48,733 nt of DNA, taken from positions 1-48,733 of the forward strand of contig JAGHQL010000190.1 of the NCBI GenBank assembly GCA_020080175.1. The letters run 5' to 3'. The notes beneath the pieces are model-generated. The model was not told the DNA's origin, searched no databases, and saw nothing but the letters and a program-made list of their open reading frames with translations. Position numbers and translations under genes: made by a program. Shown here one piece after another: positions 21,828-43,875 of the stretch (position 1 is its first letter; every line of letters begins with the position of its first letter). The stretch comes from Glutinoglossum americanum (Eukaryota > Ascomycota > Geoglossomycetes > Geoglossales > Geoglossaceae).

Positions 21828-22262
21828 GATCTTGCCGCATTGGCAGACGTAGAAATCAAGTCGGCGTCATCAGGCGGAGAACAATTGAAAGAGAATTTGG
21901 CCGGAAGATCAGCAATGAAAATGGCTGGCTGATCTACGTACTAAATATGAAAGACGAGGCTTTGGCGATCAGTTGGTCTCCACTTGGTAAATCGAAAAAC
22001 TATTAGAGGGAGTGATGGCGATAATAGCTGAAATGTAGACGTCGTTGACGATGAAACGAACGGGAATAAGATAGATGGGTATCTTGTACAGCAGGTATTA
22101 TACAATGATATGCAATAATATGCAATGGATAATAGTTGCAAGTGCAAGGCGGCTCTGCTTACTCGTGGCTTACTCGCCAAGCGGGGAAGAAGCTTGGGCT
22201 TTAACCTCACTAATTCTAATTTGAATAACTTTCGAAGGAGTATTCGCACCCAGCAACTCATT
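21828..22262. other. Divergent RFTS-gene/PUS4 intergenic region
   Basis: About 435 bases with both promoters. Near 22085-22135 there is an ATGCAATA-like motif repeated three times. In-frame cysteine codons just upstream of 21827 hint that coding sequence of the RFTS gene may extend here. Confidence 0.5.
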
Positions 22263-23488
22263 ATGAACACAGGCAAGATCATCCAGGGTGTCTTTGGTCA
22301 GCTGTCATTCAGAACGTTCAAACATTTGATCGATTCCGCTGACTAGTTCAATCGTTTCCCTTAGCAATTAACAAACCTCCGGCGAAATCCTCTGCTCAAA
22401 TTGTCCGTGATCTGCAAAAGCACTTCAACCCTTCAAATCTCTTCGCCCCTTGGTTAGCGGCCGAGAAGAAAAAGCGTGATCGTGAGAGCAACAACCAACG
22501 CCAACGACGCCGCAACAAGCACTTACAAGTCAAAATCGGGCATGGCGGCACTCTTGATCCTATAGCTACTGGCGTGCTGATTATCGGCGTCGGAGCAGGT
22601 ACGAAGGCATTGAACGGCTTCCTAGAATGCACGAAGTCCTACGAGGCTGTTGTCCTGTTTGGGGCTGCAACCGATTCCTATGATTGCGTGGGGAAGATTC
22701 TTGGTCGAGCACCGTACTCCCATATAACCAAAGAGAATGTGGAGGAAGCCCTTCAGCAGTTTAGAGGAGAGTTTCTCCAGAGACCACCGATATTCTCAGC
22801 ATTGAGAATACAGGGTAAACGACTCTACGAGTATGCTAGGGAAGGTAAGGAGGCACCTGTAGAAATTCAGAAAAGACGCGTCGTGGTTTCGGAGTTGGAA
22901 TTGGTTGAATGGATGGAGGGTGGGGCGCATCCCTTTTCCTGGCCAGAGGAGGAAGCTGAGCAGGGCGAGCAGGCGGTGGCTAAGCAGATATTGCATGCAG
23001 AAAAACTGGATGCTGAATTGGGTGTGAAAAGCCATGGTGTGGGTGACCTGGCGGCTGGCGTTGGCACGAAGAGAAAATGGGAGTGTGTAGCAGAAGCAGA
23101 TCAAGCAGGCGATGAGCCGGAAGCTTGGGATCCCAGGGGGCGAGGCATTTCGACTAAGTCTGCCGTGTCCGGTGTCCCCCAACCCTCAGAAGTACTTCAA
23201 CATATAAACGAAATAGAGCCAGTGAGCACGACGGAACACGCAACGTCCCTCAATGGAAAACCTGGACCGCCTGCGGCCAAAATACGCATGACAGTCACAT
23301 CCGGCTTTTACGTGCGGTCATTGTGCCACGACCTTGGGCAGGCAGTAGGCTCGATGGGCATCATGAGTCAACTAATACGAACACGGCAAGGACAGTTCTC
23401 ACTCGGGGAGAACATTTTAGAGTATGATGATCTAGCTAAAGGCGAAGGAGAATGGGGCCCAAAAGTCAGCGAGATGCTCAGCAACTAG
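22263..23488 (+). CDS. PUS4: tRNA pseudouridine-55 synthase PUS4
   Basis: TruB-family enzyme making pseudouridine 55 in the T-loop of cytosolic and mitochondrial tRNAs. Exons 22263-22296 and 22365-23488; 385 residues. After splicing the N-terminus reads MNTGKIIQGVFAINKPPAKS, the normal TruB start. The catalytic loop is GHGGTLDPIATGVLIIGVG with the nucleophilic aspartate; then KSYEAVVLFGAATDSYDCVG, RPPIFSALRIQGKRLYEYAR and the C-terminal SGFYVRSLCHDLGQAVGSMG. An insertion of about 80 polar residues (roughly 225-310, e.g. EEEAEQGEQAV, KRKWECVAEADQAGDE) separates the two conserved halves of the catalytic domain. Fungal Pus4 proteins vary here. The 34-base first exon explains why the uninterrupted frame appears to start late. 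Confidence 0.94.
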
Positions 23489-23900
23489 ACTACTATTGAA
23501 CGTAGAGTAGAAATGAATTGATTGGCTAGCTATTGTACTCCGTGGAGTGTGCGTATGTCCCCTCTATATAACATTGAGGTCGCGGAACCCCTTTATGTAT
23601 GGAGTGTTAAGCTTCCCCGCCGGCGACCCCGTGTTAGTGAATAGGAGCCACACGTTTTAGGCCACTCCTATTTGTTAACACAGGGAGGCTTTCTGCATTC
23701 CACCCACAACACATGGCCTTCGTTCCCACAAATACAAAATGGTCAACATGAAATGGCGGCATGGGTTGCTGTAGTCTCCATATACCAACTACCGCTCCTA
23801 TGGTTATATACACCTCAGGAACACGAGTTTAAGGAGAGATCAGGAAATAAGCCATCTACCACTGTCAACTTGATTGCTGTGACGCAACAGTGAACCGACG
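23489..23900. other. Spacer at the left edge of the repeat island
   Basis: About 400 bases downstream of PUS4 with normal base composition and no recognisable gene. AT content rises sharply after about 23.9 kb, marking the edge of the repeat island. Confidence 0.5.
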
Positions 23901-24729
23901 ATCTCTGACCACCCTGGCGATAGGCCTGCATTATATGATTGCATTATTAGTGATTGAAAATTAGTTAGGGATAAGTGCATTCATAACACTCATTGGATCC
24001 GATTGAGATACGCCAATCCCTAACCGATTAGACAGTTAACCATGAAGCTCCCACCGTACAAATCAATAAAGCTTCTAGAAGCCAGCACCATCAGGCTGCT
24101 ACAGACGGCTCTTCGAGCGCTAGATTGATCGCTAGAATACGGGTTTACTTTATCTGACTTGTCCATGTAGGGTAACCAAGAGCAACATTTGACTGATTCC
24201 TCTATCCAATCGGCCTATTAAAGGTAAGCAAGATACTTTAGAGATGATGTGATTCTATCCAATCTCGACTGTTTTCTCAAGCTGTTCTCAAACCGTTCGC
24301 AGTAGAACCTCTAGCAAACAGTTACTATTATTGTTCAATATAGAGAACCAAGCGGTAGTACTCAGTTCTATAAAGTTTATTATCAGACCAAGACCCAGAA
24401 CCAAAATATCAAGATTACAACTGTACTGTATGAATATTCAGGTATTGATATAATATACTACATACCTTCTTGTTCAATATTCCTATTCAGTATGATATCT
24501 AAGATCAAGGTATAATTATTCAGTATTTATAAAATCATTAGAATGATCGCCAGAATAATTTCTAAGTTAATGTCTATAGCATGATTTATATTAGTACATT
24601 ACAAGGTAGGTGAACAAATATATGAGTCAGTAAACAATTTTTTGATCATCGCTATACTGAATTGAGATTTGTTCATACTGTTAGTAACTCAGTCAGTTTC
24701 TCACATTTCTATATCTAAGCAAATACTCA
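23900..24729. other. AT-rich decayed sequence, origin not recognised
   Basis: Strongly AT-rich, without credible open frames. It probably consists of old repeat sequence continuous with the decayed minus-strand material to its right. No LTR, inverted repeat or protein fragment could be recognised in it. Confidence 0.45.
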
Positions 24730-25085
24730 TATATTGTCCTGACTAACTATATATCTTTAGCCTGAATAGTCATACGTTTAGTATGGATTACTATAAGATT
24801 TGTCACTAATTATATAACTGAGTTAGTATTTTCAATAGTATAGAAAAGAAGTTCACAATATACTTAATTTTAAATTCTGTAGCAAGAACTGTCTCAGCCG
24901 CTTCTTAAAGAGCCTTTAGAGCTCCAGGCTAGATTTGGTAGTATAGCTAGCTAGGATTACTAGCATCCATACCTTCAATATTAATAAGAATTTTTTAGAC
25001 AATATATATAAATGGTACTTTCTAGATTAACAGTTCGGTAGATCACTAATAATGATAAATTTCATGAAATACAATAGCTAATATA
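24730..25085 (-). pseudogene. Decayed histone H3-fold sequence
   Basis: Minus-strand translation shows pieces of a histone H3 core in the right order. First comes a segment with EI..Y followed by STELLI and K-PF (alpha-N to alpha-1 of H3, at about 25010-25065). Then EAAETVLATEF (alpha-2, at about 24868-24905). Then NL-VIHTKRMTIQAKDI followed by LVRTIYE (loop 2 and alpha-3, at about 24735-24800). Between the last two lies a stretch with a plausible fungal intron (donor GTATAT, branch ACTAAC, acceptor CAG, about 24817-24862). The spacing between alpha-1 and alpha-2 is several residues longer than in canonical H3. The sequence cannot encode a functional protein. It may be a decayed host-type H3 or CenH3-like copy, or a domain carried by the surrounding element. 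Identity rests on my reading of several short motifs together. Confidence 0.65.
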
Positions 25086-25875
25086 TTAATATAGTTATTA
25101 TTCTATAAGAGGTTGAGAACTTACTTTCTGACTTATGTTTTCAAGGCTGATGAATAAGGCTAGTAGTTGAAAGTACAAACTAAGTTGCCCTAGCTCAAGC
25201 TACAGAAGGTCCTACTGGTACCTTTCAGGCTATAACGTGTCTGGTTTTAGCTATGTTTACTTAGATTCTAAGTTAGCTAGTAGTTATAGCTCAAATAATT
25301 CTTATTATCATTTTAGTGATTTATATATGTAAGAAAGCTAAGAAATACTTACAATTAAATAAATATAGGAAAGTTAAAACTAGAAGTTCATGTTAGTTTT
25401 AATCTAATGGATTTCAAATATAATATTTAATTAAGAAGTTGTTTCTGATGGTATTGATAAAATGTTGAAGATTTATATTAATAAAACTGACTTTTTTTTG
25501 AAGATGGGGTCTGTGCAGAAATTGAAGTTAGCTTGACATATGCAAAATAACTTAACATATATAAGATACTGTAGTAATCATTCTAGTAGTTTAACTTTTA
25601 GCTCTTATTAAACAACTTACTTTGGAAAGCTTTAAAGATCTTAATATAATTTTATGAAGTTGGTTGTATATCATAGCACATAGAACTATAAGAGATAGGA
25701 CTTGTAAGTTTAGATTAATATAGGGTTTAAAGTTAGCTTTAAAGAAAACTAGTAAGGTATAAAGGAAGCCACTCCTACTGTTATAAGTTTACTTCATAAC
25801 ACTAATTGTTATTTTGTATTGATATTATTTACGTGTTTATTTAGTAAACCTACTAACTTACTTTTTAATACCTGG
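25086..25875. other. AT-rich decayed sequence between the H3-like relic and LTR copy A
   Basis: About 790 bases of heavily AT-shifted sequence with no intact frame. Its position, on the minus strand downstream of a fossil reverse transcriptase, would suit the 3' half of that fossil element, but I could not recognise integrase motifs. Confidence 0.4.
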
Positions 25876-26305
25876 TATCATGACTTATAGTCAGTTACCC
25901 AGTGAGACCCCTGAGCCTCTGCGGCCGGGTAATCAACCCATATGATATTGACGACATCTCATCTATATGTAATGCAATCTCCTAGCCATTATGCGTTCAC
26001 TGTTGTATATATATGATCCACTGGCCTTCTGCTTGGAGGTCAGCGATCAGTCTTTTATATTTCCTACCTGCTAGAATCAAGTCTATCCCGCCTGCTATAC
26101 ATTCTAAGTCAGACTGATGTGTAGTTATCCTTAAACTATTGAGTCAACCTATTAGCTCTTATATACCTAAGTCTTATCTACATGTAGGTCAAGCGGCTAG
26201 TCATCATTGTCACTGCGAGGTGCGATGTCACACTATTACCGAACCTCCCTAAAATTTTTAAAGTTAGAGTACCTTTGTGTCGCCTTGACATCAAGGGTTC
26301 TTACA
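25876..26305 (+). repeat. Solo LTR-like copy A (second LTR family), old
   Basis: It aligns with copies B and C along its length (shared cores GCCTCTGCGGC, GGAGGTCAGCGATCAGT, AATCAAGTCTAT, GTGTCGCCTTG and the end GTTCTTACA) but is shorter and strongly AT-shifted. Flanking pentamers CCTGG (25871-25875) and CCTAG (26306-26310) look like a target duplication with one transition. It is the oldest of the plus-oriented copies. Confidence 0.75.
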
Positions 26306-28531
26306 CCTAGTATATATAAAATCTTTTCCCATTTTACTTCACTCTTTATGCAACCTCTTGTCCTTATACTTTTAATAAACTTCTTTTTATAAGAAATTCA
26401 ACTCTATTTACCTAGATTCATCTGGCCAAATAAGTTTACTTAATATACTTATTCTTCTGACAGCTTAATACCTTCTCTTCATATCTTATCTATGATACAA
26501 AGTATCTAAGTATAGGTACTATGATAAATCTTCGCTTGAGTAGTTAGAAAGCTTCTTTATATTCTTTGAACTAATGAAACTTGATATCTTTTCTAGAAAG
26601 TACTATAAGAGGTTTGCAAACATCTGAAAATCCCATGATAAATCATTAATAGTAGTTTGTGAATCCGATAAAAGCTTAAATATCTTTCAAGTAAAAAGGT
26701 TCTTTTCATTGAATAATTATATCTACCTTAATAGAGTCCATTCATATTTCATCAGTAAAAATTATCAGCCTTAGGAACTTAGTCTTTGTAACATGAAATT
26801 TAGATTTATATATATCAAGATAGAGACTAGCCTCTCTTAAAGTTAATAAAACTACTTGAATATATTCTTAGTATTCCTTTAGGGTATTGTTGTAAATAAT
26901 TATATTATCAAGATATACTAAATAGATGTCATGACCCACAGTTGGTTATCCGGCCAGGCCATTTAGGCCTCTGCGGCTGGGTAACTAGCTCGAGTTATGC
27001 AAATGGCAACTCGCCTATATAGCTATATGGATTCTGCAAGCATACATCCTTATTGCTTTATGACGTCTGTTCCATTGTTGAATACCCGTCGTATATATAA
27101 GCGGCTTGCTAGCCTCCCGCTGGAGGTCAGCGATCAGTTCTTCTACATCTCCTACTCATTAGAATCAAGTCTATTCCGTCTACTCTACATTCTAAATCGG
27201 GCTGACATCAAGTCGCCCTAAACCATCGACCATCAAGTCCATCCATTAGTTTTCATACATCTAGGCTTTACCTAGACGCAGACCAGTCGGCCAACTATCG
27301 TCATCGCTGCGGGGTGTGATGTCACACTGTTATCGAACACCCTAGATCCCTCAACGTCGGAGTGCCTTCGTGTCGCCTTGGCATCGAGAGTTCTTACAAT
27401 AGAAGATATTCAAGAAAGGTTGTAGAATATTAATAATAAAGTTTTGAAATAAGCTTAAAGTATTAACTAAGTTAAAGAGTATAATTAGGTATTTAAATAA
27501 TCTGTATCGAGTTCGGAAAGCAGCTAACTACTTATTACCTTCAACAATATGAAGTTTGTTAAAAGCAGTAATAATATTGAACCTAGAGTAATAGTAAGTT
27601 TTATTTAACTGTATAAGTATTTTATTAATAAGTGGAATTGAATAATGATTTTTAATAGAAATAGCATTTAGCACTTGATAATCTACATAGAATTAAAGTC
27701 CTACTTCTGATTTCTTGACAAAGAGGACTAGCGAAGCTACTAATAATAATAATGTATGGATAAACCCTTTACTAAGGTTTTCTTCCAAGTATTTTTGAAG
27801 AACTTTTAGTTCATCCTGAGACATGCCATATAATGGGCCATAGCTTAGTTATTTTTTTTAACTTTCAAGGTAATTTTGTAATTGTACTATTGATAAGGGG
27901 GGAGTTTGTCAGACTCTTTAATACTGAAGATATCTAGAAGATCATGATACTTCACAGAAACAATAGTACTTGCATTGATAATATTTTTGGAGGCCAGTAC
28001 TTTCTCAATATCTCAGATTGAAACAGTAAAAAGTTGAACATCTTTCTTATATACTAGATAAATAAAAAGAGCAGCACTTATCATATAAACCTTAAAGAGT
28101 TTAGTACTAGGAGAAATAGGTAATCGAGTTGAAAAAGGGTAGAATTTCAGGTCTTGAAAGTTACTCTTAATTACAGAAATGGTAGTTAGTGAATTCGAAG
28201 GTAAGCAGTATTGGAAGTAGTAAGAATCATCAAATATGATAGTATTTTGACATATATTCAACTTAATACTATAAAGTTGAGCCCACTGTATTCCAAGAAT
28301 AATTGAATAATAGCTAAGGCTAGTTAAAAAGAATGGTAATATCTCAATATGCTTACTAATCTGTACTGTAACCAGAGTGTAATATGTAACAGATCTAGCT
28401 AAGATTAGTCATCTATATACTACTTCAAGAAGATGTGAAGAGGCGAGTTAATAAATAAGAAGGAAGCATTATTGCATAAAAGATTTGTTCATAAAAGTAA
28501 TATCAGTAATATTAGTATTAATAAGAGAAAA
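26306..28531 (-). mobile_element. Fossil Ty3/gypsy pol region (minus strand), very old
   Basis: Minus-strand translation shows a decayed aspartic-protease region (about 28.5-27.95 kb, ending near a QNTI-F motif). It is followed by reverse transcriptase (about 27.85-26.4 kb) with recognisable LFVKKSE, FYVDY.VLNAISIKN and a YLDN box. The reverse transcriptase is split by the 472-bp solo LTR copy B. No gag region is recognisable: an LTR-like sequence lies directly beside the protease end. The element is thoroughly broken (dozens of breaks) by transition-dominated decay, indicating great age relative to the plus-strand chromovirus. Confidence 0.8.
26927..27398 (+). repeat. Solo LTR copy B with perfect 5-bp target duplication
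   Basis: 472 bases beginning TGTCATGAC and ending GTTCTTACA, flanked on both sides by ATAGA (26922-26926 and 27399-27403). It is about 93 percent identical to copy C by manual alignment (34 differences in 472 positions). It contains a TATA-like ATATATAAG. It is inserted in the reverse-transcriptase region of the minus-strand fossil, so it is younger than that element. Confidence 0.9.
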
Positions 28532-29001
28532 AGTATAAAAACTTTCAATATTAAGATGATACAAAGGTACTCTGATACTAAGAGTTCTTGAGAGGTTCAA
28601 TAACAGTATGATGTCATACCTCGCAGCAACAATAATGGCTAGTCTCTTGACTTACATATAGATAAGATTTAGGTATATAAGGACTAATGAGTTGACTCAA
28701 TAGTTTGAGAATGACTATATATTAGTCCAACTTAGAATGTATGGCAGGTAGGATAGACTTAATTCTAGCAGGCAGAAAATATAAAAAACTAATCGCTAAC
28801 CTCCAAGCAGGAGGCTAGCAGGTCATATATATATACGATAGTAAATGCATAATGGTTGGGATATTGTATTATTATTAGAATGCAAGCCTTCAGCATTGAC
28901 TTCAAAATATATACTTCCAGAGTCTATATATTACTATATGAATAAGATGTTTTTAACATCACATAAGCTAATTACCTAGCTGTAGAAACTCAGTAGCCTC
29001 A
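28532..29001 (-). repeat. LTR-like copy D (minus orientation), old and truncated
   Basis: Reverse-complement relative of copy A: it matches CAAAGGTACTCT, the region around CCTCGCAG, AGACTTAATTCTAGCAGG and CTAACCTCCAAGCAGGAGG. It is AT-shifted and incomplete at its upstream end, where the inverted partial copy of LTR X begins. It adjoins the protease end of the minus-strand fossil in the same orientation, so it could be that element's 5' LTR with gag lost. Confidence 0.65.
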
Positions 29002-29329
29002 TGTTATGATAGCCACCAGGTAAGAGCCCGGTGAGCTACCAAACAAGCTGAGAAGGAGGGCTAGCCCTGAGGAAGGTTGGCGTAATATAGGGGGGTCTAC
29101 CTTATACGTAATATACTAAGCCAGTGACATACAAGGGGGGGCCCACAAGGCTCTACTAATGACATCATCATAGGAACTCCACATAGGAGTACGGCCGGTG
29201 GCGAAGGAACCACACAGCATCATAGGAACTCTACATAGAAGTATGGCCGGTGGCGAAGGAATCGTACGGGCATCATAGAAACTCCATATAGGAGCACGGG
29301 CAGCGGCAGAAGGCATGGCCAGTGGTGAG
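29002..29329 (-). repeat. Partial inverted copy of LTR X
   Basis: Reverse complement of the right half of the 716-bp LTR X at 31420-32135. It shares TGTTAY..AGCCACC, AACAAGCTGAGAAGGAGGGC, TAGCCCTGAGGAAGG and about three copies of the roughly 53-base internal repeat (GGCCGGTGGCGAAGGAA...CATAGGAACTC). It stops exactly where the chromovirus 5' LTR begins. The missing half is not found beyond the 3' LTR, so the junction is not a simple intact insertion. Confidence 0.8.
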
Positions 29330-29597
29330 TGTTACGACTATAGTGGCCTACGTATGGCTCATGTGTGGCCTGCTGTAGGCTATGGTACTAAAGTTAACCC
29401 TTGGTATTCGGTATGAGGCTTGCGGAGCCTCAGTGTTAAGACTATGGCTCGCCGGCACTGTGCAGCCATGCAGTGTTATGCCTATATATATATAACTTTC
29501 ACACATCCCACATCCTCTTTCTTCCTCTAATTTAATATTGTCTTAATAGAATCTACCCAATATACCTTCCAGGCACCAGAACTGGCAATTTGTGATA
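29330..29597 (+). repeat. 5' LTR of the plus-strand chromovirus
   Basis: 268 bases from TGTTACGACTATAG to AATTTGTGATA, collinear with the 3' LTR at 33980-34247. It contains a TATATATATAAC element. The flanking pentamer (GTGAG) does not match that beyond the 3' LTR (AGCTA), so no target duplication remains. Confidence 0.9.
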
Positions 29598-29774
29598 TAA
29601 TACTAAACTCACCCTTACTTCACGATCTAGCGGCGGATCAAAAATATATCGAACACAGCCATGAAGGAAGCAGTCATATCATCGACGTGGCCACCCTTGT
29701 GACCACCTAACAATACGACAACGATACAAAAGAAGACTTACGCAAGACTCAAAGTATGGCCAAAGAGGCTATCG

Positions 29775-30246
29775 TGTCATGACCCGCAGTCGGTTATCCG
29801 GCGAGGCCATTTAGGCCTCCGTGGCCGGGTAACTAGCTCGGGTTACGCAAACGGCGACTCGCCTATATGGCTATATGGATTCTGCAAGCGTACATCCTTA
29901 TTGCTTTATGACGTCTGGTCCATTGTTGAATGCCCGTCGTGTATATAAGTAGCTCGCTGGCCTCCCGCTGGAGGTCAGCGATCAGTTCTTCTACATCTCC
30001 TGCTCATTAGAATCAAGTCTATTCCGTCTACTCTACATTCTAAACCGGGCCGACGTCAAGTCGCCCTAAACCATCGACCATCAAGCCCATCCATTAGTCC
30101 TCGTACATCTAGGCTTTACCTAGATGCAGACCAGTCGGCCAACCATCGTCATCGCTGCGGGGTACGACGTCACACTGTTATCGAACCCCCTAGATCCCTC
30201 AACGTCGGAGTGCCTTCGTGTCGCCTTGGCATTGAGAGTTCTTACA
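29775..30246 (+). repeat. LTR copy C inside the chromovirus, no target duplication
   Basis: 472 bases, TGTCATGACC to GTTCTTACA, the same length as copy B and about 93 percent identical to it. It sits between the first about 180 internal bases of the chromovirus and its reverse transcriptase, where gag and protease should be. The flanking pentamers TATCG and GATAC do not match. A deletion or recombination accompanying this copy, rather than a clean insertion, is the simplest reading. Confidence 0.85.
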
Positions 30247-31419
30247 GATACTCATCATTGTGCCAGCATTCAACCTACGAGCTACAGGAGATGAAGCGGT
30301 TCCTGGAAGAGAATCTCCAGCGGAGCTTCATTGAGCCAAGCCAGGCCCCATTCGCCTCCCCAGTCCTTTTTGTGAAGAAACCGAATGGCACCTTGTATTT
30401 TTGTATAGATTATCGCAAACTTAACAGCCTAACCCGCAAGGACTAGTACCCATTACCTTTAATCGATGAGACACTTGTGCGGCTTACTAAGGCCAAAGTT
30501 TATACGAAGCTAAATATCCGACAAGCATTTCATAGAATCTGCATAGACTCAAGCTCAGAAGAATTGACGATGTTCCACATATGATATGGCGCCTACAAGT
30601 GTAAGGTCCTATGGAAAGGTATGACAAACGGCTCTGTCACATACCAGAGGTATATGAACGACATCCTGTTTGACTACCTGGACGATTTCTGTACAGTATA
30701 TTTCAATAATATCCTAATCTATTCAAAAGACTCTCTGGAGTATACAGAGTACATATGTAAGATACTAGACCGACTGCAGGCCGCAGGCCTGTAGGTGGAT
30801 ATTAAGAAGTCTGAGTTCCGCACCACCCGTACGAAGTATCTAGGCTTTATTATATCTATGAATAGTATCGAAGTCGACCCAGATAAGATAGCTGCAGTGC
30901 GCAATTGGAAGGTACCCTCTATGGTTAAGGGAGTGCAAGGCTTTCTAGGATTCTGCAACTTCTATCAGTGCTTTATCAAGGAATATGAATGTATTGCACA
31001 GCCTCTCAATGCACTTACTCGTAAAGGAATAACTTTTAAGTAGACAGACTAGTGTCAGGAGACATTTGACCAACTGAAGTGAGCTATACTTAAGGCGCCG
31101 ATACTATACTACTTTGACTATGAACTTCCAACTATGGTAGAAACTGACGCCTCGAACGGAGTAGTGGCCGGCATCCTATCATAGCAACACCCGCAATTGA
31201 GCCACTGGTACCCTGTGGCCTTTTTCTCAAAGACAATGCAGCCGGCCGAGCTGAATTATGATATCCATGATAAGAAAATACTTGCTGTCATCCTCGCACT
31301 GGGAGCATGGCATGCCGAGCTCGAAGGAGCACAAGTAGCCCCCTTTTTAGTCTATTCGGACCATAGAGCATTGGAATACTTTATGACTACGAAGAAGCTA
31401 TCCGTAAGGCAAGCTTGCT

Positions 31420-32135
31420 TGTGACAGCCGCTTATATAAGCTGGGCCATGAAGGTTGGGTGCCGCGGGCGTCGAGGCCGAGCTAGCCCTAGAGGGCTGGT
31501 CATGACGGAGCAAGGGAGGCCGGCCGTGTGGCATGACAGGAGGGTAGGCCTAATGGTCCTTAATAGTCTATCTAATGTGATTATGGTATTGACCGATGAG
31601 GTTCCCTTCCGGACCCTCCTCGGCCTTCTATATATACTAATGGCCCTGAGGGGCCCACGGGTAGGGACCTGCCCGGTTCCCTCTATAGACGCGTATGGAC
31701 CCCTTGCCTTCAGCCGTGCTTCTATTGGGAAGTCCTTATGATGCCCATGTGGTTCCCTCACCATCGGCCATGCCTTCCACCACTGGCCATGCTCCTATGT
31801 AGAATTCCTATGATGCCTGTGCGGTTCCTTCGCCACTGGCCGTACTTCTATATGGAGTTCCTATGATGCTGTGCGGTTCCTTCGCCGCCGGCCGTGCTCC
31901 CATATGGAGTTCCTACAATGCCGTGCGGTTCCTTCACCGCCGGCCGTGCTCCCATGTGAAGTTCCTATGATGACGTCATTGGTGGGGCCTTGCGAGCCCC
32001 CCTCGTATGTCATCGGCTTAGTGTATTACGTATAGGGTGGACCCCCCTATGCTCCGCCAGCCTTCCTCAGGGCTAGCCCTCCTTCTCAGCTTGTTTGGTG
32101 GCTCACCAGGCCCTTACCCAGTGGCCACCGTAACA
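31420..32135 (+). repeat. Solo LTR X (716 bp) inserted in RNase H of the chromovirus
   Basis: Begins TGTGACAGCC and ends CACCGTAACA. The flanks TTGCT (31415-31419) and TTACT (32136-32140) form a 5-bp target duplication with one transition. The chromovirus protein similarity resumes directly after it (WAEYLSRYYFKL). GC content is higher than in the surroundings, so it is younger than its host. It contains a tandem sub-repeat at 31741-31972. Confidence 0.85.
31741..31972 (+). repeat. Tandem sub-repeat of about 53 bases within LTR X
   Basis: Units start at about 31811, 31865, 31918 and 31969 (spacings 54, 53, 51), with a longer degenerate unit before them. Each unit contains TGCGGTTCCTTC, a GCCGGCCGTGCT-like core and GGAGTTCCTA. 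The same unit, inverted, occurs about three times at 29160-29329. Confidence 0.85.
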
Positions 32136-33979
32136 TTACTGGGCTGAATATCTATCGCGATACTACTTTAAGCTCATATATCGAGCAGGCAAGTCAAATG
32201 AATGAGCTGATGTATTAAGTAGGAGAACCGAAGATATAACGATACAGAACCAAACGATAGCTGTATATAGGATGCAGGTCCTTCTACTACGAGACAAGAT
32301 ATCTGACGAAGTAGTCCAGGACCTACAGCTTGCCCTTATCGAGTCTGACAAGTGGCACAATAGTATGGAACTAGTGGATCGCCTGTTAGCTGTCAACCGT
32401 ACATCTCCTAAGTTAGAAAAGTTCTGAATACAGGCATGCAATGAAAAGAAAAGTATATGGTAACTCTGGAATGGCCTTCTCTTATGAGATGGTAAGCTAT
32501 ATGTACCCAATAATCAGTTAATGCCTGAGATGCCCCTGCGGACTGCTCTAATTACAAAAGCCCACAAGCAGCTACTATCAAGCCACCCAGGCCATGCTAA
32601 GCTATGGCAGCTAGTTCAGAGCCACTACTACTGGCCAAACCAAGGAAAGGATATTGACCGCTATCGGAATAACTGCTATGCTTGCAGGCACTCGCATGTA
32701 CCCCGTGACAAGAAACTAGGCCTCCTACACCCCTTGCCAGTACTGGACCGCCCATAGCAGCATGTATCTATTAACTTTAAGAAGTATCCTGAAAGTAAGA
32801 ATAGACATAATATAGTAGTAATCTTCATGGACCGTCTGGGTAAACGCCCCATCAGCATCTCAGTACGAGATACTATTACTGCAAAGGAGCTCACACCTCT
32901 CTTCCTTATGTATGTAATGCAGCATGTCAGTATATCAGAAACAATTGTATCAGACAGAGGTCCACAGTTTGTGTCAGACTTCTGAGATGAATTCTGCAAG
33001 CGTATAGGCACAAAGCTGAAGCTCTCGACAGTGAACTATCTACAGACTGACGGACAGACAGAAATAGTCAACCAGTACTTTGACTAGCGCCTTCGGCCTT
33101 ATGTGAACTACTACCAGGATGATTGGAATGAGTGGGTTGCCATAATAGACTACCAGCAGGCCGCATTATGGTATAAGACTACGGGACAATTACCATTCCT
33201 TACAAAGAAGGGATACAAACTGCGTACCTCATTCGATTGGGAGGCACAGGTGGATCTGCAGGCCGCAAGCACCCCAAAGGAAAAACCGAATCGTAATGAG
33301 GCAAAGGCTCTAGTGAACCGGCTCCACGAGTCCTGGCAGTGTGCAAAGGCAAGTATGATTCAAGCTTAGAACAGACATACTGCACAGGCGAATAAGCACT
33401 GACGGGAACCCGACTTTAGGGTAGAAGACAAGGTATGGATCACTACAAAGCATTAGAAGACCGATCGGCCAAGCCGAAAACCCGCAAACTAGATGGAAGG
33501 CCCGTACAAAATTCTGAAGTAAGTTGGATACTCATATAAGCTAAGGCTGCCTGAGTTGATGAAGGTACACCCAGTGTTTCATGCAGAAAAGCTACGGTGG
33601 GACCCCGGTGACCTACTGCCTGGCCAGACCAACCCCGAACCCTCTCCGCTAGAGCTCGAGGATGGCAAAACAGAGTACGAAGTCCAAGAAGTGCTAGCAG
33701 TTAAGTTAGTATGGAACAGACTAAAGTATAAGATACAATGAAAAGGATGGGACCCAGATCCAGAGTGGTACCCAGCTTCAGGCTTAAGTAATAGCCTGCT
33801 TGCTTTGCGAGACTTTCACGAAGTACACCTAACCTACCCCGGCCCCCTAGCAAACCTCCAGTACTGGCTAGACTATGCAGCAAAGGACGAGTACCCAGAG
33901 CCCCATCAGGATGATGACAAGCAAGGTAAAAGCATGAAGCTAAGCTCGAAGGCGAGTTTACTTCAAGGGGAGAAAGTAA

Positions 33980-34247
33980 TGTTACGACTATAGCAGCCTA
34001 TATATGGCTCACGTATGGCCTACTATAGGCTATGGTATTAGAGCTAACCCTTGATGTTCAGTGCGAGGCTTGTGGAGCCTCAGTATTAAGACTAGGGCTT
34101 ACTAGCACTGTGCGGCCATACAGTGTTATGCCTATGTATATATAACTTTTGCATATCCCACACCCTCCTTCTTCCTCTAGTTTAGTATCGTCTTAATAGA
34201 ATCCACCCAATATGTCTTCCAGGTACCGGAACTGGCAATTTGTGACA
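33980..34247 (+). repeat. 3' LTR of the plus-strand chromovirus
   Basis: 268 bases, TGTTACGACTATAG to AATTTGTGACA, the partner of 29330-29597. It follows the chromodomain-like end of the polyprotein region by about 150 bases. Confidence 0.9.
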
Positions 34248-34763
34248 AGCTATGACACTTATTCGAGCTTGAGAACTCATTCATGAGCTCATGAATAACC
34301 TCCCGAATGACCTTCTTGAGCCTCGAGTACCTACGGCACCCCTCTAGGATCTGACACAATAGCTCTTTTAAGTTTAGAAAATTGAATAAATACTACTTTA
34401 TTAAGTTGAAAATAATAAACTCTGTTTGTTGCTTATCTTTTACTATCTTTGAGACATGTAGGATCAACTTTGCCTTACTGAGACTCTTCTAGCTACTAAT
34501 TAATTTTAATAAACTTAGAGAACTGTCAAGTTCTATTACAGAAATGATATTTGGCGAGTCTATAGTTGAAACAGTCAATATGATTGTATCTATTTTTTTT
34601 GAAGAATATTATTAGTGAGAATAAAGTAAATATGAAAAGTAGCAGCTCACTTTACTTATATAAGTATAGAGCAGTACTGTTTACCAGAATATGTTAAAGA
34701 ACTAGTGACTAATTTGGTAACTGGTCATGACTCTCACTGGATGCGTACTAGTATATACTATTA
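34248..34763. other. AT-rich decayed sequence
   Basis: About 500 bases between the chromovirus and the TA-flanked elements. No gene was recognised; it resembles the older AT-shifted background of the island. Confidence 0.45.
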
Positions 34764-35661
34764 GTCAGCCCAAATTAATTAGTTAATCTAAAATTATAAG
34801 TAGCTCTTAATCAGTATATATACTACCAAAAAATATACTACACCTGTTAGGTTCACTCTTTAGGCTTTTCTCCACTAAACTTTAGTTAAAACCTCCTCCT
34901 GCTTTAGTTAAGTCTTCTTCTAACTTTAGTTATGACTTCATCCTGGCTCTTGTAAAAGTAATTTTTACTCTCTTAAAAGTAATTTATTTATGCGATAAAT
35001 TATAAATATGTTTAATTCAGTAACTTCTCTAATCCTAGTAACAGGAATTCTTTCTTCTTGAAGAATGAAGACCTGAATATGAAGAGAAATTGGGTTGAGT
35101 AACCGGTGCGACTGCAAGGCATTTTAGTAGAGTAGGTAAGTTGTCACTCAACTAAAGTCTAGGCGGTGGCTTCAAATTCTTTTGCAGTGAGCCCCACAAT
35201 TTTAGGTTGACTAACGTATTTTACCACCCTACACCCAGTATCACCCTACGCCCACCCTCAAAAAAGTATGTAATATCGACATTTTTCAACTCTCAATAAC
35301 TCAACAACCACCTAATAAAAATGTGCGCAATTTAAGATTTCAAGAGTCTATACCCATGCGATACCGCCATGTAGTTTACATGCTGTACAGGTTTATTGTT
35401 ATGTCTGAATAGGCATCCAGTGCTGTGTCGCACGCCAGGATCGCTACTTAAAGACTCTCCCTTTAAGCTAAGAGCCTATAATTAAGAAAAAAATATTAAA
35501 ATGCTATAAACACTTCTTATTATTGATTACAAGCGAAAATAGCAAGTGGTTGTTGAGTTATTGAGAGTTGAAAAATGTCGATATTACATACTTTTTTGAG
35601 GGTGGGCGTAGGGTGATACTGGGCGTAGGGTGGTAAAATACGTTAATCAAATTGGGCTGAC
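34764..35661. mobile_element. TA-flanked inverted-repeat element (outer), host to a MITE
   Basis: Ends GTCAGCCCAAATTAATTAG and, inverted at the right, GTCAGCCCAATTTGATTAA, each flanked by TA (34762-34763 and 35662-35663). This suggests a Tc1/mariner-superfamily non-autonomous element of about 470 bases before the inner element was added. A partial third copy of the end motif (GGTTGAC) lies just left of the inner element at 35205-35211, so an alternative is an outer element ending there. No transposase is visible. Confidence 0.6.
35214..35643. mobile_element. MITE of 430 bp with about 105-bp inverted repeats
   Basis: The left arm (from ACGTATTTTACCACCCTACA, 35214 to about 35318) is the near-perfect reverse complement of the right arm (about 35537-35643, ending GTGGTAAAATACGT). 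The element is flanked by TA on both sides (35212-35213 and 35644-35645). The TA target and the TIRs fit a Tc1/mariner-pogo-type MITE. The arms are almost identical to each other, so it is relatively young or recently homogenised. The central about 215 bases have no coding potential. Confidence 0.85.
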
Positions 35662-35665
35662 TAAC

Positions 35666-35685
35666 GGCGCACACCGGTGTGCGCC
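35666..35685. repeat. Perfect 20-base palindrome
   Basis: GGCGCACACCGGTGTGCGCC is its own reverse complement. It lies three bases beyond the TA flank of the outer inverted-repeat element. It is GC-rich at the boundary between AT-rich island and gene-bearing DNA. Confidence 0.9.
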
Positions 35686-36245
35686 TAGTGGGAGCCACCG
35701 GTCACCAGGTCTTGCCAATTAAAATAAGGTCTAACAATCTCCGTATTACCCGGTCTCAGCCAGGTTTCCGAATCACATCGGCAGCATATGCAGAAACTCA
35801 ATTTAATCGTAATTCTCCATGAACACTAACTGAAAGCAACTGTATTAATTTGACACCAGTTCTGGAGAAGTTGTCAGTGTAAGGTTCTTGAGCCCCTAGG
35901 ATTTCGGGAATAGCACGCTGATGGGTTTAACAAATCTCTAAATTCTCGGGCTAGGGTATATACAAAAGGCGATTGAAATTCAAGGGGAATGAAATGTAGT
36001 AGCTCGCAATCGACGCTTTGCAAGTTCTAGCAATCTACTCGAAATAAATCGCTCTTGAGGGCTAGATTAGTACATGTAACTTAACTCATAGCCAATGTTC
36101 ACCGTGTACATTATGTGGTTAAGTCACACCAAGAGCATTGACCAGCCTGAATTTTCACATTCAAACCCCAGGCTGTTGAAGAGTCGTAGAAACACAGCAA
36201 CTAATAGCTAATACAGGTATTCCGATCACCCTCATTGCGTCGTGC
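35686..36245. other. Right-edge spacer, no gene recognised
   Basis: About 560 bases leading from the repeat island to the 3' end of the YML020W-like gene. Composition returns to normal. No repeat or gene was recognised. Confidence 0.5.
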
Positions 36246-39045
36246 TCAAAGTTTCGACTTGACTGCCTCGAGTCTGAACTTCACATCCTTCAAAACTTTG
36301 CTGGTAGGCTTCCAGTTGTCGAATTGCTCCAGTAGCTGCGCTGTTTCGTTATCAAGCTCGGTCTTCACATATTCCTCCTCTAGTAAACCTCGCATTGACC
36401 AAGGCAAGATGAAAGGGTTGCTGTTTGTGGGGGCCTCGTATTTGCTGACCTGAAGGGGCACGTCGCCGACTGAGGAGGTTTCCAGAGCATGCTCCACAGC
36501 AAGACTATAAGTAGTCAGCATACGTCGGCCATGCAGTAAGACCTAATTGTGGTCTAATTGTGGTACATACTCATAAACAAGCTCGTCATCGTATATCCTA
36601 GAGTGTCCTTCCCCAGTGTACAAACTGCCAGCAAGAGGGGCGCTGAGCTCCCTGATGAGTCCGTGGTCTGAAATCCCAAGGTTACGAAGTTTCAACGCAA
36701 AGCCTACCAGGTGGGTAATGCTGCACAAAAGTAAGTGGGCGCAAATCAAGACACTCCAAGAAGAATTCAACATACAAATCAGGGGCATGGACCCTTCCAT
36801 CAACAAAAACAGCGCGGTATATGTAAGGGTGGCTTATGGTCGAGAAAGTAGAAGACTTGAATGGTGAGCATTTAAATAGGATTACAGCGGACTAAGGGTA
36901 CAAGAGTGTTGGCATACCTCAAGAGATACCAGTTGATCGTCAATACTTCCAACAAGCAGCAATCTTACTCCATGTTTAACCACAACTCTCATTGCGTCTC
37001 CATATTTCTTTGAAACAAGGCTGTCGGGATTAGAAAACTCGAAAAGTTCTCCTGCGGATCCGTTAAATAGTCGGGACTTGTAATCTGGAAACGGTCCTAG
37101 ATTCACACCAGCCATAGCGCACACACCAATTCTTGCCGCGCTGAGACATCCGAAATCAATCAACTTTGCGACTAGCATGATTGCAACAGGGACGCCCTGC
37201 GAGTGGCATGCGATGAGGATAATATCAGCCTTTTGGATCTGGTCTATCCAATTCAACATCAATTTCCACAACGTGTCCACCCGTTCCCCAATTTTGCCTT
37301 CTCCTTCCAGAGCAACCTTCTCGATCTCGCACTCATAGCCTCGACTCTCCGTCCATTTCTTAATGGCCGCGGCAGCTGAATTCGCAAATCGAGTGGAAGT
37401 TCCAGTGGGTTGCCCAAGGACAGAACGGATGAGAGGAGCTGGAAAATATCCATGAATTCCAATGGCAATTGCCCTTCTCACAAGCGGGGGGTCGCGGACA
37501 ATGTGAACGTGTTTCGCTTGCTCCTGCTTCCCCTGCAATAGTAGCCGCGCTAGTTGCTGTAAGATTGACGAGTTTTCCTCTTGGTGGTAAGTATTTCTGA
37601 AGGATGGGAGGAGTAAATTTGGCGACATGGCCTTTTGCTGCTTTGCGGTTTGTTCAACTGGCCTTTGATTTGATACCATAGGGCCCGGTGGCAACTTATT
37701 GGACGCCGAATCATCCGATATGTCTAGTGATTTTGGCCTACCTCTTTTTCCCAACTTGGTAGTTTCAAAGCTTGCTGATGCATTGCTCTCCGCACACTTT
37801 GCCCCTTGTGAGTGCGACTGCAATTGCGATGGCGTGTCGGCAACGGATAATTCGCCAACAATGTCTACAGCCGCGGGATCATCAGCTGTAGATTTTCCTC
37901 TCTCCCTCGACCAAAAACCCCACCCTGATGACCGGTCTGGCATAGGCTTCGATTTCGCTAGAGAGAACTCTGGGGGTGCTTCAGCCATCGAGGTATCCAC
38001 CAGACCCCGAGCTGTATTCTCCCAAGCGATGTTATGGCCAGCAGATGGTAGAGGCCTCGATTTGCTCAAGGTTTGGTCGGGCATATTGCTAGATGCAGAG
38101 TGCTCGCTCTGGCCCTGTGCCGGAGTGCTGCCACTCCAGAATCCAAACCAAGGCCTACTATTCTGTGTGATAGAGGCGATGTCTGGGTCGTTGTTAGGGT
38201 CTTTGAGCTGATCTGGAGACTGTGTCGGTATCGAGGATAGGCCGCCTGCTTGCCCTGACTGCGGAACCTCTATCTGCGCTCCTTCGGTGAAAGGGGTCCC
38301 ATGACTAGGCTGCTGGCTTTCAACCCCATGTTCAGCCGTCGTGGCCCTGGAAAACCAACCAAACCAGCCATATTGAGAAATCATTGCACTGTCTAACACG
38401 GGAACAGGGGGCGCTTTCTCCTGGCCTTCCAAATTCTCTGGTATTTTTGAATCACTCACGGATTCTTCCTCATCTAGTTTCGTGGGGTGCTCTTCAGTAA
38501 CACATTCTCTAACCTCGGAGATATGATCATCAACCAAACCGTTCGACGTTATGTTTAGCTTCGTTGTAGCAGCCGCCGCTGGGAGAGACCTTGATGAGGT
38601 CTGGATGCTGTGCCGAAGATAAAGGGAGGGTGGTCTTTGAAGGCCTTGCTTGGCTTCGGGAGTTGCTGGGTGCTCAGGCCTTGAAGTTGGACGGGGCCCC
38701 GCCGTCTCATTCACCAAACTGGCTGTCGAAATAGTCTCACGTGCAACTTGCGTGATAGGGGTGGATTTTGATATTCTGGGCCATGTTCCGCCGTACCAGC
38801 TCCGTGTAGACTGTGACTAGTTAAACCAGTACTCCGGTGCAGACTAATCGCGGACCTACCACTGGTGTACCAACACTGCTTCCAGTATCCACTTGTCTCG
38901 ATGGAGACCCTCCTCCATCGGCCGCAGTGAGGGAGCCTCCGAGGGTGTCAGGATTACTTGAGGGAGAGAATGTAGGGTCGACTGTACTATTATCGACAGG
39001 TGGCTGTGACGGAGGATTTGGTTTGGCGCGCTTTCGAGATCCCAT
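36246..39045 (-). CDS. YML020W-like alpha/beta-hydrolase-fold protein
   Basis: Conserved fungal family typified by yeast YML020W; function unknown. Minus-strand exons: 39045-38860, 38810-36918, 36855-36776, 36720-36571, 36504-36246; 855 residues. The N-terminal half is disordered and proline/serine-rich, with the family signatures SWYGGTWPR, QYGWFGWFSRA and PWFGFWSGS (repeated W-G-F-W motifs). From about residue 450 a hydrolase-like domain begins: RRAIAIGIHGYFPAPLIRSVL, then ILIACHSQGVPVAIMLVAKL, where CHSQG stands where a lipase GxSxG nucleophile elbow would be. Later come LLLVGSIDDQLVSLE, ISHPYIYRAVFVDG and a C-terminal NPFILPWSMRGLLEEEY. The first exon/intron junction is slightly ambiguous (acceptor before 38810 or 38816, both in frame). 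Enzyme activity is unproven, because the first glycine of GxSxG is replaced. Confidence 0.85.
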
Positions 39046-42332: not shown

Positions 42333-43875
42333 ATGGGTTTCTTTGATCATTTCCACAAGGACGGCACCACAGCCCTCAAGGCCCAGACTCCAAAGACAAG
42401 AAAAGAAGTGGTGAAGTCGGCGGTGGCGCCCAGTTCATCGGGCAAATCACCAGTTGTTAAACACTATCGCAGCCAGGCTCTAGTCAACACAAAGTCGTCC
42501 GATCGGGATATTCCAGATCCCCGAAAGTCTCTTGCTAGTGGGAAACGGGACAGAGCTCGGCGTGTACGAAAGCGGGCCTCGCCATTGCAAAGTCGCCTTG
42601 TATCTAGCTCTGACGACAGCGACTATGGGGAGTTTGAGATACAGCCGCACAAACGGATCAAATCGGACAGCAGAGAGAAATGCCCTAGAAGTCTGCGCTA
42701 CGAGGCTGCTCCCACGAAAGATAATGACAGCAAGTTCACCTTTTTGCATGCAACCGACATTACAGCCTTGGGACCAACGAACAACTACAAGGCCGCGTTT
42801 GGAGATCAAACCGAAGTAGAGATTTCTCTTCAATATCCAGGTGGCTCTCAGCAAGAACGGTACACTTTCAACCCTTAGCTCTAACATCCCTATGACTTAC
42901 ATCTCAATTAGGTATCAACTCCTTCATCCTCGGGATAATGAAGACTTTAATCCGGTGGACGATATGATTAGGGTCATAGAGTTGATTTCAACATTCTATC
43001 TCTTGTCAGAGCAGGCGGAACCTCTACTCGATGAAAATTCCGGCATAATACGGAAGCTAAGGCGAGCGTTAGCACGAAAGTCGGGACAGGAGTTTAGAGA
43101 AGGTGTTTTAAGGTACAACCAGATTATTAAAACTTTCCGGGACAATGGGATGGTCTCGAAGAATCTGGATAAAGTACATTGTCTACCCCTTCCGCTCGTC
43201 GAGCGGATACTGACGCAAACTTATGCACGGACGGTGTCATTACAAGTCAGTGCCCTGAAAAAGTACGAAAACGGGTCAGACAATGTATATGGCGAACTTC
43301 TACCCAGGTTTATCTCTAAAATCTTCCATGACACCGGACTGAAGTCAGACCAGGTTTTCGTAGATCTTGGATCCGGTGTGGGAAATGTGGTCCTGCAAGC
43401 TGCTCTTGAAGTCGGGTGCGAGAGCTGGGGCTGCGAAATGATGGAGAACGCTTGTGAACTAGCCAAACGTCAGGAGAAGGAATTCACCGCTAGATGCCGT
43501 CTTTGGGGGCTCGCGATCGGGGACTTAAATCTGGAAAGGGGTGATTTTTTGAAGAACCCCAACATCGCCAAAACACTCAAGAGGGCCGACGTCGTCTTGG
43601 TGAATAATCAAGCCTTCACACCAGAGCTCAACAACGGACTCATGAATCTCTTTCTCGATCTTCGAGAGGGATGCCAGATCGTATCTCTTAAATCTTTTGT
43701 GCCTCATGACCACAAAATCACGTCCCGGAATTTCAATTCGCCTATGCATCTACTCAATGTCGAGAGGAAGGAATACTTCTCAGATAGTGTTAGTTGGACT
43801 AATGCCCCAGGAACATACTTTGTTGCCAGAAAAGATAGCACAAAGTTGAAGGAGTTTCTTGATAGAATGGGCTAG
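42333..43875 (+). CDS. DOT1: Histone H3 lysine-79 methyltransferase DOT1
   Basis: Nuclear enzyme methylating H3K79 in nucleosomes; roles in silencing boundaries and the DNA-damage checkpoint. Exons 42333-42859 and 42912-43875; 496 residues. The start [10 protein letters not shown] matches the usual fungal N-terminus; in-frame ATGs also occur at 42318 and 42195. The N-terminal about 170 residues are basic and disordered (nucleosome/DNA binding). The catalytic fold has [33 protein letters not shown] (SAM motif I), [30 protein letters not shown] (substrate-channel loop) and [19 protein letters not shown] motif I is intact, so the enzyme should be active. It lies tail-to-tail with ATG16, about 290 bases apart. 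Confidence 0.95.

What the first reader, a model, noticed from the sequence alone, without database searches (positions are those of the whole stretch)
24730..25085. A decayed histone H3-like fold buried in the repeat island
On the minus strand, short segments in the correct order match the H3 core: STELLI...K-PF (alpha-1), EAAETVLATEF (alpha-2), then NL-VIHTKRMTIQAKDI and LVRTIYE (loop 2/alpha-3), with a plausible intron between the last two. The alpha-1 to alpha-2 spacing is longer than in canonical H3, which is more like divergent or centromeric variants. It lies downstream of, and on the same strand as, a fossil gypsy reverse transcriptase, and the surrounding DNA has the same AT-shifted decay. 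Either a host-type H3/CenH3 copy was captured and decayed, or a repeat family of this genome carries an H3-like cargo domain. I know of chromodomains in such elements but not of a well-described histone-fold cargo.
Basis: partly seen in the sequence, partly recalled or inferred. Interest (0 to 1): 0.78.

Follow-up and report, generated by a model that had tools for sequence, protein, structure and literature searches.

The report
RIP-decayed histone H3 relic in repeats
A repeat island, most likely fungal, holds the mutated remains of a histone H3-type gene, probably wrecked by the fungus's own defence against duplicated DNA; this is a real find, but of a kind already described in other fungi.

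Summary
On the minus strand, 25075-24732 encodes a broken, collinear histone H3 core from alpha-N to the end of alpha-3. tblastn of H3 over the window gives E=3.3e-6 with stops penalised; 0 of 500 shuffles reach its best piece. phmmer against PDB gives E=3.9e-12 for the two joined pieces. The decay looks like repeat-induced point mutation (RIP): 22 of 45 mismatches to H3 need only C>T/G>A, 3 only the reverse, and the island has RIP-type dinucleotides, though also CpG depletion. Best reading: a copy of an H3-type gene became repetitive and was destroyed by RIP. That kind is published: H3-like genes in hAT transposons of Pyrenophora tritici-repentis, RIP-killed H3 copies in six Mycosphaerellaceae, RIP-degraded repeat R25 of Stagonospora nodorum. 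I found no hAT domain or terminal repeats here, so I do not file it as hAT cargo. Nothing shows that it belongs to the neighbouring gypsy relic; CenH3 is not supported over plain H3. The host genome is not held, so copy number and host are untested. New member of a known kind.

The parts
24869..25075 (-). H3-like piece A: alpha-N, alpha-1, long loop 1 and alpha-2, one frame, seven in-frame stop codons (six in columns aligned to H3)
   Evidence: tblastn; phmmer against PDB; stops in aligned columns listed
24804..24868 (-). 65-nt gap between the two pieces with a frame change; possible short intron (GTATAT...TACTAAC...TTAG) or insertion with an indel; unresolved
   Evidence: the nearest GT..AG reading leaves the frame off by one base (read by eye)
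24732..24803 (-). H3-like piece B: loop 2 and alpha-3 (TNLIVIHTKRMTIQAKDI*LVRTI)
   Evidence: tblastn (E=3.3e-6 jointly with piece A)
24200..29000 (.). AT-rich island with RIP-type dinucleotide composition
25876..26305 (.). solo LTR (AT-shifted) between the H3 relic and the gypsy relic, flanked by CCTGG / CCTAG (one mismatch)
26499..27842 (-). decayed gypsy reverse transcriptase / RNase H relic, interrupted by a second solo LTR
26927..27398 (.). solo LTR inserted in the reverse transcriptase relic, 5-bp target duplication ATAGA

Best explanation
[quoted passage not shown] Shown here: H3 homology from alpha-N to alpha-3, loss of the reading frame by stops and one frame change, a C>T/G>A-biased substitution pattern, and RIP-type composition of the island. 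Inferred: the host is a fungus; the gene copy was duplicated; its carrier was a mobile element, as in the published hAT transduplications of H3 in Dothideomycetes (this one step I put at about 0.5); RIP recognised the copies in the sexual cycle and converted C to T on both strands, giving stops mainly at Gln and Arg codons. As it stands it can hardly encode an H3. The ancestor may already have differed from canonical H3 (9 more residues in loop 1, and 23 of 45 mismatches not explained by C>T/G>A alone), or the copy has decayed further since.
For: Homology. Decay pattern: 22 of 45 mismatched residues (84 aligned columns, 39 identical) are reachable from an H3 codon by C>T/G>A only, against 3 by the reverse changes only; 0 of 20000 permutations reach 22 (mean 9.4, maximum 20); 5 of 7 stops in aligned columns lie on Gln or Arg with such a route, P=0.002, the other two on Lys and Asp. 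In the five 1-kb bins 24001-29000 TA/AT is 1.11-1.32 and the composite index +0.09 to +0.49; in the twenty-four bins to the left the index is -0.15 to -0.81. Published precedents.
Against: No transposon could be shown to carry it: no hAT Pfam match in 23950-37000 (E<=5 for 23950-29100, E<=0.1 for 29000-37000), no convincing terminal inverted repeats with target duplication, no second H3 relic in the window by tblastn. The host genome is not held, so that the copy was repeated, and that the host is a fungus, are inferred. The island is also depleted in CpG (observed/expected 0.27-0.80, against 0.73-1.22 in the bins to the left), so deamination of methylated CpG could account for part of the pattern, the Arg changes in particular. 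23 of 45 mismatches and 2 of 7 stops are not explained by C>T/G>A.
Confidence: 0.7

Rival explanations
1. A plain segmental or retro-copied duplicate of the host H3 gene, never carried by a transposon, that landed in or near repeats and was RIP-mutated.
For: No transposon boundaries or transposase were found around it. For the similar repeat R25 of Stagonospora nodorum the authors concluded that it came from a presumably endogenous gene region (PMC3017866, passage).
Against: No histone H4 remnant was found in 23800-29300 at E<=5, although H3 and H4 genes are typically linked in fungi (PMC3538342), so a duplication of the whole H3-H4 locus is not supported. No significant match to the N-terminal tail either (best E 1.3, elsewhere). 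The long loop 1 is not that of an ordinary H3.
Confidence: 0.35
2. An H3-like domain encoded by the neighbouring gypsy element family, comparable to a chromodomain.
For: Same strand and downstream of the RT/RNase H relic.
Against: Only about 990 bp lie between the RNase H remnant (26499) and alpha-N (25075) once the solo LTR is set aside, too little for the rest of RNase H plus an integrase of usual size (recalled). Queries made from the H2C2, rve and SH3 pieces of the neighbouring gypsy gave nothing significant in the island (E<=1 listed: 0.045, 0.27, 0.62). The better preserved gypsy at 29-34 kb shows RT, RNase H, H2C2, rve and an SH3-like domain and no H3 match.
Confidence: 0.05
3. A decayed duplicate of the centromeric H3 variant (CenH3).
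For: Longer loop 1, and EAAE as in human CENP-A (that these are CenH3 traits is recalled). H3 and yeast Cse4 score nearly alike.
Against: E-values are 2.5e-5 for H3, 7.2e-5 for Cse4, 0.015 for human CENP-A; the CENP-A score on the island (51) is equalled by the best of 500 shuffles. Transposon-borne H3-like proteins in Pyrenophora match neither class fully.
Confidence: 0.15
4. Chance resemblance in AT-rich DNA.
For: Pfam scores stay below the gathering threshold, and raw-frame Pfam scores are weak.
Confidence: 0.01

Closest known systems
RIP-inactivated H3-like copies in hAT transposons of Pseudocercospora fijiensis and five other Mycosphaerellaceae (PMC6710886)
   Same: H3-like sequence in AT-rich blocks, RIP pattern, premature stops, shortened H3 (90% of the P. 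fijiensis copies are 71-100 residues; 84 columns aligned here), 16 extra residues in one of two copies per element (9 in loop 1 here; their place in that paper was not seen).
   Different: There 784 copies in 471 elements, hAT domain in 277 of them, 20-bp TIR and 8-bp TSD in 99 complete ones, no introns (in the other five species the hAT domain was found in three); here one copy seen, no hAT or TIR found, and a possible intron.
H3L transduplication in a hAT element of Pyrenophora tritici-repentis (PMC3538342)
   Same: H3-like protein that fits neither H3 nor CenH3 fully, in a repeat.
   Different: There 26 nearly identical copies, two with frameshifts, with transcripts and, according to PMC6710886, little RIP; here one dead copy.
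RIP-degraded repeat R25 of Stagonospora nodorum (PMC3017866)
   Same: Degraded repeat in which histone H3 homology becomes clearer once RIP is allowed for, with only weak transposon homology.
   Different: There a repeat family, which its authors reclassified as coming from a presumably endogenous gene region; here copy number unknown.

Membership tests
Histone H3-type gene (as a pseudogene) | Sequence homology to the H3 core | tested here: met
Histone H3-type gene (as a pseudogene) | Pfam Histone gathering score | tested here: not met
   25.5 bits against 26.4, on pieces joined by eye with X at stops; this is a threshold for intact proteins, so it lowers certainty rather than homology
RIP-mutated duplicate | C>T/G>A-biased decay with TpA excess | tested here: met
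   CpG depletion in the same bins leaves room for a second cause
RIP-mutated duplicate | More than one copy in the genome | not testable with these tools
   host genome not held; one copy in the window
hAT-borne H3 transduplication | hAT transposase domain in the element | tested here: not met
   decay may hide it
hAT-borne H3 transduplication | Terminal inverted repeats with 8-bp target duplication | tested here: not met
   22000-33500, exact 8-bp duplications; 23850-24720 against 25090-26060
CenH3 | Longer loop 1 than H3 | tested here: met
   9 extra residues
CenH3 | Closer to CenH3 than to H3 | tested here: not met
   with human CENP-A and yeast Cse4 only; no filamentous fungal CenH3 was at hand, and Cse4 is close behind H3
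CenH3 | Location at centromeres | not testable with these tools
   needs ChIP
Gypsy-encoded cargo domain | Located after integrase in pol | tested here: not met
   no significant integrase remnant in the island

The most novel reading that the evidence does not exclude
An independent capture of an H3-type gene, with its own intron and a long loop 1, by a repeat family other than hAT in this lineage; undecayed copies elsewhere in the genome could still make an unusual H3-like protein.
Probability: 0.12. Interest if true: 0.55.

Novelty: new member of a known kind. Interest (0 to 1): 0.3.

Why it matters
It is probably another case of a nearly invariant housekeeping gene drawn into repeated DNA and then destroyed by the fungus's own repeat defence. 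The cases I found in print are all in Dothideomycetes; if the host here lies outside that class, the range would widen. It also shows that an H3 relic can be recognised without computing an ancestral sequence.

Tried and rejected
Gypsy cargo domain: rejected for lack of integrase and of space. CenH3 duplicate: not supported over H3. hAT element: looked for by Pfam with lax thresholds, by a recalled generic hAT C-terminal consensus (best match in the island E=0.95, inside the solo LTR) and by TIR/TSD scans; not found. Duplicated H3-H4 locus: no H4 match and no significant tail match. Relatives in viral contigs: 86 pattern matches, none confirmed. Relatives in prokaryotic genome contigs: 46 pattern matches, 10 confirmed, 79-99% identical to H3 and two of them over residues 48-85 or 49-85 only, all in metagenome bins; I take them for eukaryotic contamination and did not read them. 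tRNA (bacterial settings) and Rfam scans: nothing. The frame-aware alignment takes an implausible path through the middle, so I rely on tblastn.

Papers: PMC6710886: abstract and outline, Background (part 1 of 7 of the whole text), Results in both parts, Discussion part 1 of 2. PMC3538342: passages, and part 1 of 2 of the transduplication section. PMC3017866, PMC4112212, PMC4210507, PMC9676040: passages only. Other papers: search listings with the start of abstracts only.

Full report
Observation. The minus strand at 25075-24732 carries two in-frame pieces of a histone H3 core. Piece A (25075-24869) reads IVFHEIYHY**STELLI*KVPFIYIV*KILINIEGMDASNPS*LYYQI*PGALKAL*EAAETVLATEFK; piece B (24803-24732) reads TNLIVIHTKRMTIQAKDI*LVRTI. 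tblastn of an H3 core against the whole window, with stops penalised, gives a joint E of 3.3e-6; the next place has E=1.2. In 500 dinucleotide shuffles of the island the best piece scores at most 55, against 68 in the real sequence; reversed H3 scores 40 in the real sequence. The joining was done by eye, so tblastn is the cleaner number. Pfam is weaker: 25.5 bits on the joined core, just below its gathering score of 26.4, and on raw frames only piece B at E=0.0082 and 0.038, with no histone match at E<=0.01 in the scan of the whole island.

KDI and LVRTI are separated by one TAG codon, not by an intron. The change of frame is between alpha-2 and loop 2, over 65 nt. These contain GTATAT, TACTAAC and TTAG in intron-like order, but the implied splice leaves the frame off by one base (by eye), and TACTAAC occurs 9 times in the window against 4.8 expected, so an intron is only possible. 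Loop 1 has 9 extra residues.

Kind of decay. Of 84 aligned columns 39 are identical to H3 and 45 differ. 22 of these 45 can be reached from an H3 codon by C>T or G>A only, 3 by the reverse only, 20 by neither; 20000 permutations average 9.4 and reach 20 at most. Of 7 stops in aligned columns, 5 lie on Gln or Arg with a C>T/G>A route (P=0.002), one on Lys and one on Asp without. The island 24-29 kb has GC 0.29-0.35, TA/AT 1.11-1.32 and a positive composite RIP index in all five 1-kb bins; the twenty-four bins to its left are all negative; bins to its right are mixed, with further repeats at 29-36 kb. This is the pattern of RIP as I recall it. The same bins are depleted in CpG (0.27-0.80 against 0.73-1.22 to the left), so loss of methylated CpG may have contributed. 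RIP implies that the sequence was once repeated, which I could not test because the host genome is not held. That the host is a fungus is inferred from the RIP pattern and the genes; no taxonomic test was possible.

Surroundings. The island lies in a stretch of ordinary eukaryotic genes (Pfam TruB, Ebp2, Spb1, DOT1, HAM1; 6 of 8 ORFs given to one search had a match). A gypsy RT/RNase H relic lies at 27842-26499 on the same strand. It is interrupted by a solo LTR at 26927-27398 with target duplication ATAGA, and separated from the H3 relic by a second solo LTR at 25876-26305 flanked by CCTGG/CCTAG. No significant integrase remnant was found in the island. The gypsy relic and the H3 relic are therefore neighbours; nothing shows one element. 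No hAT domain was found in 23950-37000 and no terminal repeats with target duplication around the H3 relic: the 4 candidates all lie to its right, and the best of 7 candidate inverted pairs matched 3 of 8 flanking bases, while 20 shuffles gave 2 to 5.

H3 or CenH3. With cores of equal extent, metazoan H3 gives E=2.5e-5, another H3 from PDB (7wlr) 2.6e-5 for piece B and 0.18 for piece A, yeast Cse4 7.2e-5 and human CENP-A 0.015. The long loop 1 and the EAAE motif point towards CenH3, the overall score does not. I leave the subclass open; no filamentous fungal CenH3 was available.

What is known. H3-like genes carried by hAT transposons were described in Pyrenophora tritici-repentis, where they fit neither H3 nor CenH3 fully (PMC3538342). 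In Pseudocercospora fijiensis and five related species 135 to 784 such copies sit in repeats, all inactivated by RIP except the original gene (PMC6710886). In Stagonospora nodorum the RIP-degraded repeat R25 proved to contain H3 homology and was reclassified as coming from a presumably endogenous gene region (PMC3017866; passages). The present relic fits this kind. I do not file it as hAT cargo, because the two defining features that I could test were not met.

Verdict. A real relic of an H3-type gene copy in a repeat island, most likely killed by RIP; new member of a known kind. The carrier, the copy number, the host and the H3/CenH3 subclass remain open.

Noticed in passing
29330-34245: A better preserved gypsy element on the plus strand with RVT_1, RNase H, H2C2, rve and SH3_Tf2-1 matches, the rve match below its curated cut-off, bounded by an 85% direct repeat 29330-29595 / 33980-34245 that may be its LTRs.
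   Followed up: partly
25876-26305, 26927-27398, 28533-28871 (inverted), 29775-30246: Four copies of one LTR-like sequence with different degrees of AT shift; the first two are solo LTRs with target duplications, the last has none.
   Followed up: partly
29162-29299 and 31785-31972: 52-bp minisatellite arrays in opposite orientation inside or beside the repeats.
   Followed up: no
35207-35311 and 35546-35650: A 105-bp inverted repeat, 98% identical.
   Followed up: no
42841-43872: DOT1-type histone methyltransferase gene about 18 kb from the H3 relic; probably coincidence.
   Followed up: no
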